Source: Phytophthora sp. 'mugwort' (taxonomy: Eukaryota; Oomycota; Peronosporomycetes; Peronosporales; Peronosporaceae). Taken from it: a stretch of DNA of 64,000 bases. Position 1 is the first letter of the stretch, and the number at the start of each line of letters is the position of its first letter. Position numbers and translations under genes: made by a program. The stretch is from assembly GCA_033558025.1 (NCBI GenBank), contig JAUCEF010000018.1, positions 124,001-188,000 of the forward strand, read 5' to 3'. Positions 48,266 through 54,045 of the stretch are shown here, in pieces. Under the pieces are notes generated by a model. It did no database searches. It worked only from the letters and a program-made list of their open reading frames with translations, and was not told the DNA's origin.

Positions 48266-48517
48266 GTGAGCTTACCAACCAGCCTCTGCTGCTCCGTATC
48301 AGATGCTCGTAACTCGAGTCTTTAAGGGACTATAGGAGCAAGTGACAGAAGAAGATACATACATATCAACCGTGCAGGCCAGAGTCTTATTTCGTTTAAA
48401 GTTGAATGAAAAATACCCATCCATAAATCCCCACCCAGTCCGCTTAATTGGACGGCTCAGGCCTTCCGAAAAATTGCAACAAATAGCGCTGGTTTTTGCC
48501 AAGCGAAATTCATTTTA

Positions 48518-48541
48518 TTACGGAGGGCACTGAGAATGTCC
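48518..48541 (+). repeat. Left terminal inverted repeat of the Fanzor transposon
   Basis: TTACGGAGGGCACTGAGAATGTCC by position; it pairs with 52095-52118, mismatching only at the sixth and ninth bases (G versus A). TA at 48516-48517 is the presumed target duplication. Confidence 0.88.
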
Positions 48542-48550
48542 ATACTCTTT

Positions 48551-48560
48551 TTTAAATATA
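48551..48560 (+). promoter_or_regulatory. TATA-like box within the transposon's left end
   Basis: TTTAAATATA lies 10 bases inside the left TIR and 8 bases before the transposase ATG (48568). It is close to the ATG for a conventional TATA box, so transcription may start outside the element or this may be only A/T-rich spacer. Confidence 0.25.
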
Positions 48561-48567
48561 TGGTAGC

Positions 48568-49593
48568 ATGAAATCTCAAGCCGAGCGAGATGTATGTTCT
48601 CGGTTGCGAGCCATGGGCTTCACCCTGTGCCAGATCGCCGATGCATTGGTCGTCTGTGTACGCACTGTGCAGCGTTGGCTAAAGGGTGGATCCAGAGCAG
48701 CTCGACCTCTCAACCGAGACTCTCGTCGGAAGCTATCAAGTGAACAAGAGGAAGCAGTCGTTGATTTCTTTCAGAGCAAGAACACGAGTCGGTTGTGCGA
48801 CGGAGTGGCTTTTCTAGCGCAGGTGTTCAGTGTCAGAGTCTCCGTTCGAACGCTCGGTAGAGTACTGAGGCGCTACCATCTCTCGTTCAAGAGAGCGGCG
48901 TCCGCATACCACGAGGCCGATCTTGCCCGTCAACAGACTTTCCTCTCGCAAATATCTTGCTGCTCGGATACATCCTGGATCGCACTGGATGAAGCAGCTT
49001 TCTTCCTCAATCATTCACGCAAATACGCCTGGAGTAAGCGAGGACGACCGGCTGTTGTAGTACGACCGAGTGCGAGGGGAAAGATGCACTCGTTGATCTT
49101 GGCCACGTCACCGGATGGCGTGGTCGACTGGCGACTCATGCAGGGCTCGGTGACCTCTCCTCGCTTCCACGCCTTCCTCGGCGGGTTACCAGACAACACA
49201 AGCGTTCTCTTGGACAATTGCGCAACGCATCACGCGTCGCACGTGTTGCGGAAGCAGAACCTCACCACGATCTCAGAAGTGGCCGAGTACAAACAGATGT
49301 CTTTGGCGTACTTGCCGCCCTACTCACCCCAGCTGAACCCCGTCGAGCTCTGTTTCAACTTCATTCGCAAGTACGTGAACCGAAGCGCTCCTCGAACCCT
49401 GGACGCGTTACACTCATGTATCCAGCTCGCGGTTCAAGGTCTCACGCCAACTGTTTGTCGAGGGATGTTCGCAAAGTGCTTGCGGATTGGACAAACGGAA
49501 TGTACAAACAGTAATACGAAAAATAACTGGTGGGGGATTTTTGTCGCCGGCCGGAAGCGAAATGACTTTCACATTCCATCTTTCGTACGATGA
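48568..49593 (+). CDS. IS630/Tc1-mariner-type DDE transposase, intact
   Basis: A 341-residue transposase that would bind the terminal repeats and cut and paste the element at TA. Residues 1-110 hold two helix-turn-helix units: ERDVCSRLRAMGFTLCQIADAL and VCVRTVQRWLKGG, then SVRVSVRTLGRVLRRYHLSFKR. The catalytic core follows: Asp141 in ALDEAAFFLN, Asp216 in SVLLDNCATHHAS, Glu260 in YLPPYSPQLNPVELCF. Forty-three residues separate Asp216 and Glu260 by my count, longer than the 34-41 usual for IS630/Tc1-mariner groups, so it may be a distinct lineage. All three catalytic residues and both HTH units are present and no stop interrupts the frame, suggesting activity. Its stop codon overlaps the Fanzor start codon (ATGA at 49590-49593). 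Start chosen as the first ATG after the left TIR. Confidence 0.9.
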   Translation: MKSQAERDVCSRLRAMGFTLCQIADALVVCVRTVQRWLKGGSRAARPLNRDSRRKLSSEQEEAVVDFFQSKNTSRLCDGVAFLAQVFSVRVSVRTLGRVLRRYHLSFKRAASAYHEADLARQQTFLSQISCCSDTSWIALDEAAFFLNHSRKYAWSKRGRPAVVVRPSARGKMHSLILATSPDGVVDWRLMQGSVTSPRFHAFLGGLPDNTSVLLDNCATHHASHVLRKQNLTTISEVAEYKQMSLAYLPPYSPQLNPVELCFNFIRKYVNRSAPRTLDALHSCIQLAVQGLTPTVCRGMFAKCLRIGQTECTNSNTKNNWWGIFVAGRKRNDFHIPSFVR

Positions 49594-51992
49594 CGCGCAA
49601 GCGCAAGAAAGACGACTACCCGGACGACTGGGATGTCGTGGAGGAGAGTCAAGACCCCGACGCGATGTTCCCGCCGTTCGAGACCGTGGCCGAGACGCAA
49701 GATCCGGATGGAGACGAGGAGAAGACTGAAGACAACGACGACGTGGAGACTGTCATCCAAGAGCTCTCCCAACTGCCAATACCTTCACAAGAGCTGGCAC
49801 CCCCGCCGACATATCAAGTGAAGGAGAGCACAAAAAACATCCACTCCAGCGTGATTTGCAAGCTCACCCGCGTTTGCAGACTGCCATGGCTGGTCGAGGA
49901 GATCAAGCGAGTCTGTGTGGTCATGAAACAAGTCCAGCTGGAAGGCTGGCATCTGGCCAACCTACACGTCCTGCGTTGTCTGAAGGAGAACGACGAGGTT
50001 CCTGCGATTGAACAGATGTTCTTCTATCGCTGCTGCGTTGCTTCACTGGGAAATATCGAGAAGCGGGATCGACCGAAGGCAACGACAAAGTATCCATCGT
50101 CTCACAGGACTTGCCAGCAATATTGGGCAGGTCGTGAAAGGATGACCTCCTACCAGTCGGAGGTTATTGAGAACGCTACTGACATGGTCAATGAAATTGC
50201 CAAGCTCATGTCCATCAACGCCCTCAACATGATCGCCCTGCACTTCCGGAGACGTCTGCACCAGTACATTCGGTTCAAGTACGCGGAAGAGGGCAAGCTG
50301 GAGCTCCCGTACAGGCAGACAAAGAGACTTGTGGATAGCTGTTATCGTGTGAAGGCGGTACCTGAAGAAGACGACGACGGCAACCTCACGGGCAAGATGG
50401 TCAAGGTGTGGACGGAGTGGGATGAGACCAGTGACCCAATCGAGAAGGAGTTACGCGAGTGGTTGGAGATCGTACCATGGCAGTGGCAGCTGCGTGCAAA
50501 CAGCGCCCACTTTCTCCGCAAGCTATGGGATATGCTGACCTTCATGGAGAAGTTTGTGGCCGAGCATCCGAGCCATAAAGGAGCCAGAGTGTACTCCTTG
50601 TTGCCAGTCTCGACCTCGTATCAAGCCGCCTACGTCAAACTTAATGGGTCGACCCTGTCTGGTCTCTTTGCTCGTTTGATACACGAACCCAAGGTCAAGG
50701 AGTTCATGGAAACCGAGTTGCCGGATGTTGATAAATTGCCGTTTGAGAAGAAGACATTTCAACAGCATCGAAGCGAAATCCTGCGTAAGGTGTTCAACAT
50801 CGACCAGTTCGAGACACGGAACCGCAGGTTTGCTGACGAAATCAAGACTAATGGCTACGGGGCGTCAATCACCATGATACGACCTGTAACTACGGTCTCT
50901 GTCGTCGTGAAGAAGCAGGCGCCAAAGAAGAAACAAAAGAAGAACGACGGCACCGCAACTCCTGCCATTAACAAGAAAACCAAGAAGAAGGCGAAGACCC
51001 CAGAAGAGATCGCGGAAGAGGACACGTTTGCCAAGGAGTTGTTCAAGCTTGGTCCAGGGTACTTGCCTGACGTGTTCATCGGCATCGACCCCGGGATGCG
51101 GTCTCTCGTCACTGCCGTGTCGGTTGGTCACATCCCGACTCGTACACGTCGTCGATCCGTCCACCGACGACATCAACGCGCTAGAACACGTCGAAGAGAG
51201 AGGAAGGAGCGAGTCACGGAGATCTCAACGCGTGAGTACCGGCACCTGGCTCGCATGAATGACTTCCGTTTCTACAATGAAAACCTCAAGAAGCGCGAGT
51301 CGTGGTATGCTGGAGTCGTTCACGCCATGCCCTCGTTCAAGACTGCGAGCTACGACGCTTACTGGAGCCATCTTCAGTTCTTCTGGATGCACTTGCGGTT
51401 CCTGCTGGTGTTCAGTGCGGAGCAGTCCTTCTTACGATGGCGTTTCACCCAGGACCGCGCCAAGATGAAGGCGTTGGATACACTGGCTCAACGCCTCGTA
51501 CCCAAAGCCAGCAAGCAAGTATGCATCGCCTACGGAGACTGGAGTCGTAGAGATGGCATCAAGGGTCATGCCACGGGACCGGTCAAGGGGTTCGTGGAGG
51601 CGTTGAAGAGACGTGCTACGGTGGTTCCAATGGACGAATTCCGGACGAGCATCACGTGCTCCTGCTGTCACCAGCGCCTCAAACAGGCCAGGCTGTTCAT
51701 GAAGATGAAACGGAAGAAGGACGAAGTGGACGTTCGATCAAAGGCACGGCCGTCCAAGAAGGAGGTCAAGGAGATCGCGGAGATGCGAAAGTTCCGGAGC
51801 CCCAAGCTGACGGACAAGAAGATCGTGCTCAAGTGCACCAGGAACGTCTTGCGCTGTACCAACAGTCGATGCAAGGCCAACTTCTGGAACCGGGACGTCA
51901 ACGCCTCGAGGAACATGCTGGAACTGCTTCGGAGCGGGCTAAAGGGGAAGCGAGGAGCAACGCGACTGAAAGCGTTTCGACGCGGACAGTAG
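49590..51992 (+). CDS. Fanzor (eukaryotic TnpB-like) RNA-guided DNA endonuclease
   Basis: An 800-residue protein of the TnpB/Cas12 superfamily; Fanzors use a transposon-encoded RNA to cut DNA matching its guide. The N-terminal 430 residues are an acidic start followed by helical, Trp/Arg-rich segments (recognition lobe). A Lys-rich linker at about 434-472 (KKQAPKKKQKK, KKTKKKAKT) looks like a nuclear signal. The RuvC nuclease starts at FIGIDPGMRSL with Asp500. An Arg-rich insertion follows (RTRRRSVHRRHQRARTRRR). RuvC-II is replaced by the shifted form VVPMDEFRTS with Glu683, as in Fanzors with the rearranged active site. Zinc-ribbon cysteines are Cys690 and Cys693 (TCSCCHQ) and Cys756 and Cys761 (CTNSRCKANFW). 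RuvC-III is NRDVNASRNM with Asp769. All catalytic and zinc positions are present. Size (800) and associated transposase type fit the Fanzor1 class. It overlaps the transposase by 4 bases, so translation may depend on reinitiation. Confidence 0.92.
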   Translation: MTRKRKKDDYPDDWDVVEESQDPDAMFPPFETVAETQDPDGDEEKTEDNDDVETVIQELSQLPIPSQELAPPPTYQVKESTKNIHSSVICKLTRVCRLPWLVEEIKRVCVVMKQVQLEGWHLANLHVLRCLKENDEVPAIEQMFFYRCCVASLGNIEKRDRPKATTKYPSSHRTCQQYWAGRERMTSYQSEVIENATDMVNEIAKLMSINALNMIALHFRRRLHQYIRFKYAEEGKLELPYRQTKRLVDSCYRVKAVPEEDDDGNLTGKMVKVWTEWDETSDPIEKELREWLEIVPWQWQLRANSAHFLRKLWDMLTFMEKFVAEHPSHKGARVYSLLPVSTSYQAAYVKLNGSTLSGLFARLIHEPKVKEFMETELPDVDKLPFEKKTFQQHRSEILRKVFNIDQFETRNRRFADEIKTNGYGASITMIRPVTTVSVVVKKQAPKKKQKKNDGTATPAINKKTKKKAKTPEEIAEEDTFAKELFKLGPGYLPDVFIGIDPGMRSLVTAVSVGHIPTRTRRRSVHRRHQRARTRRRERKERVTEISTREYRHLARMNDFRFYNENLKKRESWYAGVVHAMPSFKTASYDAYWSHLQFFWMHLRFLLVFSAEQSFLRWRFTQDRAKMKALDTLAQRLVPKASKQVCIAYGDWSRRDGIKGHATGPVKGFVEALKRRATVVPMDEFRTSITCSCCHQRLKQARLFMKMKRKKDEVDVRSKARPSKKEVKEIAEMRKFRSPKLTDKKIVLKCTRNVLRCTNSRCKANFWNRDVNASRNMLELLRSGLKGKRGATRLKAFRRGQ

Positions 51993-52118
51993 TCGAGAGA
52001 AAAAAAACAAGTGTCTGGAAAGACTTGCAGCGTACGCGCCGCAGGGTTCCGTAGCCAGGCACATACAAATATTCGTAGCATAGGGAAACCAGTAGGACAT
52101 TCTCAGTGCTCTTCGTAA
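51993..52118 (+). ncRNA. Candidate Fanzor guide-RNA scaffold (fRNA/omegaRNA) region
   Basis: The 126 bases between the Fanzor stop and the right element end are where TnpB and Fanzor elements encode their guide-RNA scaffold, the guide being the sequence just outside the right end. A small imperfect hairpin is visible (CAAGTGTCTGGAAAGACTTG, near 52007-52026, with a GGAA loop), and a GC-rich GCGTACGCGCCGC patch follows. No transcript evidence exists here; placement rests on the known layout of these elements. Confidence 0.5.
52095..52118 (-). repeat. Right terminal inverted repeat of the Fanzor transposon
   Basis: Inverted match to 48518-48541 at 22 of 24 bases. TA at 52119-52120 is the presumed target duplication and is directly followed by the pogo-like terminal repeat. 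Confidence 0.88.
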
Positions 52119-52120
52119 TA

Positions 52121-54045
52121 ACTTAGTTTGCCAGTTTAGTGCGCGATTTTGGGTCCCTTCGAAAAAATGGATGTGGATCCAATGAGTTGCGCATTTTGGG
52201 GCTATGGTTAGTGGCAGACAAAAGGGCAAGGCGACCGTCTAGAAACCTATTTTTTTCGATGAATTGGGCGCGGTATGGAGGCTCAAAAATGATGGTTGGA
52301 ATTGAGTTGACCACTTTAGTGCACGGTCGCTACATGTTACCTTCCAGCAGCACTTCCTTCGTAATGAGGCGGCGTTCGAAGTCCACAGTAACTCGGCGCC
52401 TCTTGCCTTTCCCACACGGGTCGGCGGCAGCAGTAAGATGCTGTTTCCCACCTTGAATTTCTCGCTTTCGCTTAAGCCTTTCAGCCTTGCCAACATCTCC
52501 GGTGGCCCCACCACTAGCAAAAGCCGAAGCCAGCCCTGCATGCACACCAATGATGTCAGATACAACCCCGTGGCGCGAAAACCATTCACAGCGTTACTAG
52601 GACGCATCATGAGCTCTGAACGATACGCATTGCACGCGATACCAATCACGTCGGTCCTGGAGATCGTGCAGCTTGAACTGACCAACGGTTTCGCGTGCAA
52701 TGCAGCTTTTACCATGGTTTTAAGCGGTTTAAACACCGCAACATCGAGGGGCTGGTACAGATGCGTCGCATTTGGCGGCAGAGGCACTAGCAAGATGTCA
52801 AGCTCCGAGCACGCCGTTACTTCGTCTACAATCATATACCCCGTCAAAATGGATAGAGACAAAAAATCTGTTTAGATGGTTAGTTCCCAAAAAAATGGAG
52901 GCTCATATTCGTACCGATACCCAAATGCGTGAAGCTGTTGTCAAGCACGAGCAACACTGGACGCTGCACGCCTTCTTGCGTCAAGTGGGCATCAAACAGC
53001 ATCACCCAAAGCTTGAAAACGCTTGCATTACTGAAGCCCGTCGGTGATCCAGTCACCGACGCAAAATCGATCGAGATTGCGGCAAGCTGGTCGCGGTAAT
53101 TACGCTTCCCCGGTAAGACAATAAGCGGGGCCACAGCGATACCGACCGCACTCACGGCAGCAATTACTGCCATGTGAAAGTTAGGCTTAGCCTTTTGAGT
53201 CAAAACGTTAGTAGAGTCTTTGACATCTATCAGCTTGCGTGTTGACGCCTTCGGCATGAAGGACGGCTCATCCATGTTGAAGACCCGGCTTGCGTCGAGC
53301 CCCTTCTCAATGACGAGACGTGCCATCGTGTAGAATAGACCCAGAATCGCTTCAGCTCCGACTCGGTTGCGAACGCGGGCAATTTGCTGGGCGATGCGTG
53401 GAGCGATGATTCTTCCTAGGAAGCGCCGGTACCAGCCAGTTGTCAGCGGCTTCAGGGGACTGTGCGGCGGGTAGACATAGTCTGGGTGGCCAACTATACC
53501 TCATTGGTCTTGGCAAGAATGCCAGAAGGGCCAACGGGAACACCGAACCGCTGCATCGCAGCAACCCACTCCACTAAGTCTGCCTCCAGCTCCTCGGGCA
53601 GCGTGGGCTTTGTGCCGCGACGCCTTCCCGCAAGCGGTTTGCCTTCTCGCTGTTCAGCAGCCTTCTTGAACAATGTCCGCACGGGGATTTTCCTTGCCAC
53701 TGCTGCGTACTTCTCGCCCCAGAAACGCGGACTAGCGCCACTTGAAGGTCTACGATCTAGTAGGTTTCCCCACGCCGCAGCGTGCCAGCTTGGCCCTTGC
53801 TCTCTTTCTCCCCTCCCTCCATGGTCCGGTGCACGAGTGGCTGACCAGAGCCGCCACAAACCGAATACCTGTCCAAATCGATAGTTTGTTTTTGGATTTG
53901 TTTTCTTGGGGGACACAAAGCACTCAACGGATCCTCAAGAGCACACCCAATCAGCATGGCAAATGTCGAACTTGCGCCAAGCGGTTGGTAGAAAGTCTAC
54001 ACCGTGCAAACAACTGGCACTGCGTAGTAAAGTGCCAAACTAAGT
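52121..54045 (-). mobile_element. Pogo/Tc5-like DNA transposon, 1.9 kb, inactive
   Basis: Bounded by inverted repeats: ACTTAGTTTGCCAGTTTAGT at 52121-52140 matches the reverse complement of about 54023-54045, ten perfect terminal bases then 9 of 13. It encloses one broken minus-strand pogo-type transposase. The left end is preceded by TA, as for pogo elements, but the right end is followed by GA, so the duplication is imperfect or the right flank has mutated. The Fanzor transposon inserted exactly at the left edge. Confidence 0.72.
52239..53916 (-). pseudogene. Pogo/jerky-like transposase (DDE_1), frameshifted
   Basis: Read on the minus strand. 53916-53494: N-terminal basic region with the beginning of a helix-turn-helix (TLPEELEADLVEWVAAMQRFG). 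About 53490-53330 continues in another frame. 53326-52880: catalytic block one VFNMDEPSFMPK, then VAPLIVLPGK and the second Asp in LLVLDNSFTHLG. 52862-52239: VPLPPNATHLYQPLDVAVFKPLK, the third catalytic block, with a helical C-terminus. Frameshifts at about 53490, 53330 and 52870 separate the parts, so no full protein can form. The DDD blocks with 'LPPNATHLxQPLD' identify the pogo/Tc5/CENP-B group. Its helix-turn-helix would have recognised the ACTTAG repeat ends. Confidence 0.8.

What the first reader, a model, noticed from the sequence alone, without database searches (positions are those of the whole stretch)
48518..52118. Intact mariner/IS630-type transposon carrying a Fanzor RNA-guided nuclease in an oomycete
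Seen: 24-bp TIRs (22/24), TA at both edges, an uninterrupted DDE transposase and an uninterrupted 800-residue Fanzor with Asp500, Glu683, Asp769 and four zinc cysteines. Known: Fanzors are eukaryotic TnpB homologues, some carried by mariner-type and other DNA transposons, and several have been shown to be RNA-guided nucleases. Inference: because all other transposons in this window are broken and this one is not, it is probably recent and may be active.
Basis: partly seen in the sequence, partly recalled or inferred. Interest (0 to 1): 0.95.

Follow-up and report, generated by a model that had tools for sequence, protein, structure and literature searches.

The report
Young mariner transposon carrying Fanzor nuclease
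This looks like a recently moved jumping gene of a Phytophthora-like water mould that carries both a cutting-and-pasting enzyme and a Fanzor, a relative of CRISPR nucleases; it belongs to a kind of element described in 2013, with a few unusual details worth testing.

Summary
At 48518-52118 lies a 3,601-bp element with 24-bp terminal inverted repeats (22/24), TA on both sides, a DDE transposase and an 800-residue Fanzor1. The host genome holds three near-identical copies at unrelated sites. The window copy differs from the second by 2 substitutions and one 13-bp deletion, so movement is recent. Fanzor membership is well supported: profile and fold both rank SpuFz1, PpFz and GtFz first, and D500/E683/D769 align with SpuFz1's metal ligands.

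Corrections: the window transposase is uninterrupted but altered. The 13-bp deletion removed its stop, giving 341 residues with a 29-residue tail in a changed frame (314 residues in the second copy). The second copy lacks the left TA; the third is 5'-truncated. No allelic empty site was found.

New here: the 102 nt between Fanzor's stop and the right repeat differ by 17-20% in three relics, against 46-50% at Fanzor third codon positions, as expected of an omega-RNA scaffold. The predicted guide (right flank) is the terminus of another TA-flanked transposon present elsewhere in the genome.

The kind is known: Bao and Jurka (2013) described a Fanzor1-plus-mariner element in Pythium ultimum. New member of a known kind.

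The parts
48516..48517 (.). TA, left copy of the target-site duplication
   Evidence: sequence
48518..48541 (+). left terminal inverted repeat (24 bp)
   Evidence: the second copy starts at the same base with a different flank
48568..49593 (+). DDE transposase (IS630/Tc1/mariner type), D141-D216-E260; the last 29 codons are in a changed frame because of a 13-bp deletion at 49501/49502 that the other two young copies lack
   Evidence: Pfam DDE_3 E 1.8e-18; invariant D141, D216, E260 in 18 sequences; copy comparison
49590..51992 (+). Fanzor1, 800 aa: DPG at D500, alternative RuvC-II E683, D769, zinc cysteines 690/693/756/761
   Evidence: fold matches
51993..52094 (+). conserved non-coding stretch between the Fanzor stop and the right TIR; proposed omega-RNA scaffold (inferred)
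   Evidence: 80-83% identical in three relics whose Fanzor third codon positions differ by 46-50%; fold z -3.94 for 51950-52118; no compensatory change in 24 predicted pairs
52095..52118 (-). right terminal inverted repeat (24 bp)
52119..52120 (.). TA, right copy of the target-site duplication; also the TA that precedes the neighbouring transposon
52121..52138 (+). predicted guide segment (inferred): terminus of a second TA-flanked transposon (R2)
   Evidence: with the TA, 8 genome sites at up to 2 mismatches including this one; reversed control 0
52239..52862 (-). ORF of the neighbouring transposon R2, DDE_1 fragment (context, not part of the element)
   Evidence: Pfam DDE_1 E 1.2e-5

Best explanation
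A young IS630/Tc1/mariner cut-and-paste transposon of a Phytophthora-like oomycete that carries a Fanzor1. Shown by sequence: the boundaries, the two ORFs, three near-identical copies at unrelated sites, relics of the same family, and an unusually conserved non-coding right end. Inferred: the transposase binds the TIRs and moves the element into TA. The 3' non-coding stretch plus right TIR (and probably the TA) is transcribed with some flanking DNA as an omega-RNA. The Fanzor loads it and cuts sites that match the right flank. Such a cut at the site that the element has just left, or at the empty homologue, would be repaired from an occupied chromosome, which restores or copies the element and offsets loss by cut-and-paste.
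Against: No expression, excision or cleavage data. Copy A's transposase has a tail in a changed frame; copy C's transposase is truncated and frameshifted. Copy B lacks the left TA. No allelic empty site was found for A or B. Support for an RNA structure is sequence conservation and folding energy only, with no covariation. Insertions in the relics relative to A were not counted in the non-coding comparison. The homing role of Fanzor is proposed in the literature, not tested here.
Confidence: 0.85

Rival explanations
1. The Fanzor is a passenger with no part in transposition; the right-end conservation serves transposase binding only.
For: No activity data; the transposase alone could suffice for movement. 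The TIR and its neighbourhood are the usual transposase-binding zone (recalled).
Against: Relic Fanzors show purifying selection (codon positions 23/19/47% in C6), so the ORF was kept for function. The conserved zone reaches about 100 nt inside the right end; next to the left TIR the one relic that reaches it (C6) differs at 10 of 26 sites, against 4 of 42 next to the right TIR. The left-end numbers are small.
Confidence: 0.15
2. The window copy is an immobile derivative: loss of the transposase's stop gives an inactive protein, and it moved earlier or on transposase from another copy.
For: Deletion private to A among the three copies; copy B ends at 314 residues; the four closest full-coverage homologues P0060-P0063 are 308-312 residues.
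Against: The conserved and catalytic residues lie upstream of the tail; added tails are often tolerated (general knowledge). More distant relatives of 350-391 residues exist.
Confidence: 0.35
3. Recent transfer of the transposon from bacteria or archaea (IS630), suggested by a 43% hit labelled Thermoplasmata archaeon.
For: P0073 is named IS630 family transposase of a Thermoplasmata archaeon.
Against: That hit is on a 3,267-bp MAG contig. Several unnamed hits of 40-47% (P0067-P0076) were not traced to an organism.
Confidence: 0.03

Closest known systems
PUl-1 and related Fanzor1 elements of Pythium (Globisporangium) ultimum, Bao and Jurka 2013 (PMC3627910, passages read)
   Same: One TIR-bounded mariner element encoding both a Mariner-like transposase and Fanzor1, flanked by TA. 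G. ultimum proteins in the database are 78% (Fanzor residues 400-800, P0001) and 72% (transposase, P0060) identical.
   Different: Another species; three near-identical copies with a 13-bp indel between them. PUl-1's own sequence is in a supplement I could not read, so that P0001 and P0060 are PUl-1 is not proved.
Spizellomyces punctatus SPu-1 / SpuFz1 (Saito et al. 2023, PMC10432273, passages read)
   Same: Fanzor1 of the same fold with aligned metal-binding residues; TIR element with putative TA duplications (PMC3627910); a short stretch between stop codon and right repeat (80 nt there, 102 nt here) that is the omega-RNA in SpuFz1; loci that keep the right end without the protein.
   Different: No transposase was found inside SPu-1 elements; only 15-17% residue identity.
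IS630/Tc1/mariner transposons
   Same: DDE_3 transposase with HTH, TIRs, TA target.
   Different: 43 residues between the second D and the E, longer than the 34 I recall for Tc1; carries a Fanzor.

Membership tests
Fanzor1 | DPG motif at RuvC-I | tested here: met
   D500-P501-G502, invariant in 23 aligned proteins; criterion from PMC10711439, passages
Fanzor1 | alternative RuvC-II glutamate six residues before the first zinc CxxC | tested here: met
   E683, six residues between it and C690; nearly invariant; criterion from PMC10711439
Fanzor1 | sequence and fold match to solved Fanzor1 structures | tested here: met
Fanzor1 | TDG motif in the WED domain (PMC10711439) | tested here: inconclusive
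   T420-N421-G422 here; TDG in several relatives
Fanzor1 | RNA-guided DNA cleavage with an omega-RNA from the right end | not testable with these tools
   only indirect: conserved non-coding right end
IS630/Tc1/mariner | DDE transposase with N-terminal HTH | tested here: met
   DDE_3 67.3 bits (cut-off 28.6), HTH_33 29.2 bits (cut-off 25)
IS630/Tc1/mariner | terminal inverted repeats | tested here: met
   22/24; both ends also in copy B
IS630/Tc1/mariner | TA target-site duplication | tested here: met
   A both sides; right side in 3 of 3 young copies; 18 of 21 related places, 14 of 16 flank groups; missing at the left of copy B, which abuts a truncated repeat
PUl-1-type mariner-Fanzor element | transposase and Fanzor1 inside one pair of TIRs | tested here: met
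PUl-1-type mariner-Fanzor element | sequence relation to PUl-1 itself | not testable with these tools
   PUl-1 sequence is in a supplement; only G. ultimum proteins compared

The most novel reading that the evidence does not exclude
The window copy's Fanzor is aimed at another transposon. The element sits exactly on the TA that borders a second transposon (R2, DDE_1 type), so if the guide is the right flank, as in studied Fanzor1 systems, it reads R2's terminus and would cut R2 ends across the genome. Copy B's right flank likewise appears to be the 3' end of an older Fanzor relic, read antisense. Fanzor guides in this genome could then act against other mobile elements, or copy the element into them.
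Probability: 0.1. Interest if true: 0.65.

Novelty: new member of a known kind. Interest (0 to 1): 0.4.

Why it matters
What Fanzors do for their transposons is open. This family gives a small, clean test case: transposase and Fanzor in one element, three near-identical copies with three different right flanks (three predicted guides), several relics, and a non-coding right end that has changed far less than third codon positions. If the guide-from-flank rule holds here, the window copy's guide matches seven further sites in the same genome at up to 2 mismatches, which by place and orientation look like ends of the R2 transposon: a target set that sequencing can check.

Tried and rejected
Segmental duplication as the cause of the three copies: rejected, flanks differ. 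Allelic empty site: the joined flanks of A and of B find only their own two halves plus repeats; copy C's flanks were not searched genome-wide, since its left end is truncated. Recent prokaryotic origin of the transposase: not supported. Giant-virus source: 519 stretches in viral contigs matched the peptide patterns, none encoded a relative by tblastn; distant viral Fanzors are not excluded. Rfam: one match, E 0.95, far below its gathering score, dismissed. Covariation support for the omega-RNA: 0 of 24 pairs with changes on both sides. The 4-base overlap of transposase stop and Fanzor start (ATGA) looked like translational coupling, but among the three copies it exists only in A, through the deletion, so I dropped it. 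A single-sequence search of PDB chains gave no meaningful hit; the alignment profile did. Species: the neighbouring RWP-RK protein is at best 82% identical over 86% of its length (P. cactorum, P. pseudosyringae; 77% P. infestans, 74% P. ramorum; only the 7,989 candidates sharing most words were scored), so a Phytophthora or near kin not matched to a named record. TAM inference from left flanks: too few young left ends. An oomycete Inr-like motif (recalled): the pattern tried over 48401-49600 matched once, at 48510 in the left flank, not before the Fanzor start. My first wording that the left subterminal stretch does not match the relic was replaced by a count.

Full report
Observation. The element at 48518-52118 is real. 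Its ends match at 22 of 24 positions and TA lies on both sides. The two ORFs are open: 48568-49593 and 49590-51992. The TIR pattern with up to 3 mismatches occurs 13 times in the 86-Mb host genome and its reversed control 0 times.

Copies. A DNA search of the host genome gives two further near-identical copies. Copy B (C14:1849783-1853396, reverse strand, 3,614 bp) has both TIRs. Copy C (C16:917182-920548, reverse strand) has lost its 5' end; its homology begins at window base 48764. In the shared part A has 2 private substitutions and a private 13-bp deletion after 49501; B has none; C has 7 substitutions and one 1-bp deletion. B therefore looks closest to the parent. The Fanzor ORF is open in all three (800 aa); A and B differ at 1 residue, A and C at 6. 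Relics on C6, C2 and C3 are 60-83% identical to A over the ORF and non-coding regions compared and 79-88% in the right TIR. A protein search lists 46 Fanzor-like matches; the three young copies are full-length, the other 43 rows are partial, many with stops.

What the 13-bp deletion did. In B the transposase ends at 314 residues. The 13 bp that A lacks contain that stop codon, so A shares residues up to 312 with B and then reads 29 residues in a changed frame to a stop that overlaps the Fanzor start. The four closest full-coverage homologues, P0060-P0063, are 308-312 aa. The catalytic residues D141, D216 and E260 are invariant in the 18-sequence alignment and lie upstream. 'Uninterrupted' is right; 'intact' needs this caveat.

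Boundaries and target. The right flank starts with TA in A, B and C. Four other places with the terminus of the neighbouring transposon R2 start with the same TA but have other sequence before it; this fixes A's right boundary and shows that A inserted at the TA bordering R2. The left TA is present in A. In B it is absent: B's left TIR abuts a copy of a repeat that in the three other places read continues past that point, so a secondary rearrangement is likely. In loci L009-L031, 18 of 21 places with a TIR-like end (up to 5 mismatches) have TA outside; some share their outer flank, and grouped by flank it is 14 of 16 (grouping by eye). Joined-flank queries for A and B found no allelic empty site.

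Is it kept for function? Relic Fanzors differ from A by 23/19/47% (C6), 23/20/46% (C2) and 29/26/50% (C3) at codon positions 1/2/3, so much of the divergence took place under purifying selection. Against that yardstick the 102 nt between the Fanzor stop and the right TIR differ by 20, 17 and 20% (82/102, 84/101, 82/102 identical; insertions in the relics not counted), and 52053-52094 by 4/42, 5/41 and 5/42. Third positions are also slow late in the ORF (51810-51929: C6 4/40, C2 8/37, C3 4/40), though faster again in the last 60 nt (7/19, 7/20, 10/20). The RNA might begin inside the ORF, but gene conversion and protein constraint are not excluded. The right end folds better than shuffles (z -3.94), without covariation. 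A C16 relic keeps this stretch at 86% over 79 nt with no Fanzor match beside it, though a transposase fragment lies about 1.3 kb away, like the 'ghost' loci of SpuFz1 (PMC10432273, passages).

Mechanism. [quoted passage not shown] By that rule the three copies carry three guides. A's would be R2's terminus: TA plus 18 nt occur at 8 genome sites with up to 2 mismatches, A's own included, one other exact (reversed control 0). The other seven look like R2 ends by place and orientation: three coincide with R2 loci, and four face them 1.8-2.0 kb away. B's flank reads GRMKEFRRL-stop in antisense, like a Fanzor C terminus, and is 87-95% identical over 36-40 bp in several relic loci. C's flank has no match among the loci held apart from C itself and was not searched genome-wide. 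Two of three young copies thus sit in or against other mobile elements; in repeat-rich surroundings that may be chance.

Known or new. Bao and Jurka (PMC3627910, passages) described Fanzor1 plus mariner transposase with TA in Pythium ultimum (PUl-1), and their table lists Fanzor families in Phytophthora sojae, P. capsici and P. ramorum. The database search here gives 59 Fanzor relatives; every organism named in that list is an oomycete, some rows name none. The kind is therefore known. Four paper searches (listings seen, library partial) showed no title or abstract on a Fanzor guide aimed at another transposon's end in oomycetes.

Noticed in passing
host genome C18:94400-104831 and C16:490555-490578: Two TIR-like ends 10.4 kb apart on C18 face each other and share even their outer flank, as does one on C16: more likely an inverted, repeated segment than a 10.4-kb element. 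Not read further.
   Followed up: partly
host genome C14:1842001-1853396: Cluster of Fanzor-element relics in which copy B lies; B's right flank appears to be the end of an older Fanzor gene in the opposite direction.
   Followed up: partly
host genome C16:255492-259700 (L015): Two Fanzor relics 2,934 bp apart with the same score, identity and stops: probably a tandem duplication.
   Followed up: no
L011 (C6 relic): The 12-mer TACGAATTGCAG stands at both ends, on the left among the outer TIR bases and on the right just after the element. Unexplained.
   Followed up: no
window 48568-49593: 43 residues between the second catalytic D and the E, longer than the spacing I recall for Tc1/mariner.
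   Followed up: no
protein hits P0013, P0028, P0030, P0037, P0039, P0044: Oomycete gene models that carry Fanzor similarity together with unrelated Pfam domains; perhaps gene-model artefacts, not checked.
   Followed up: no
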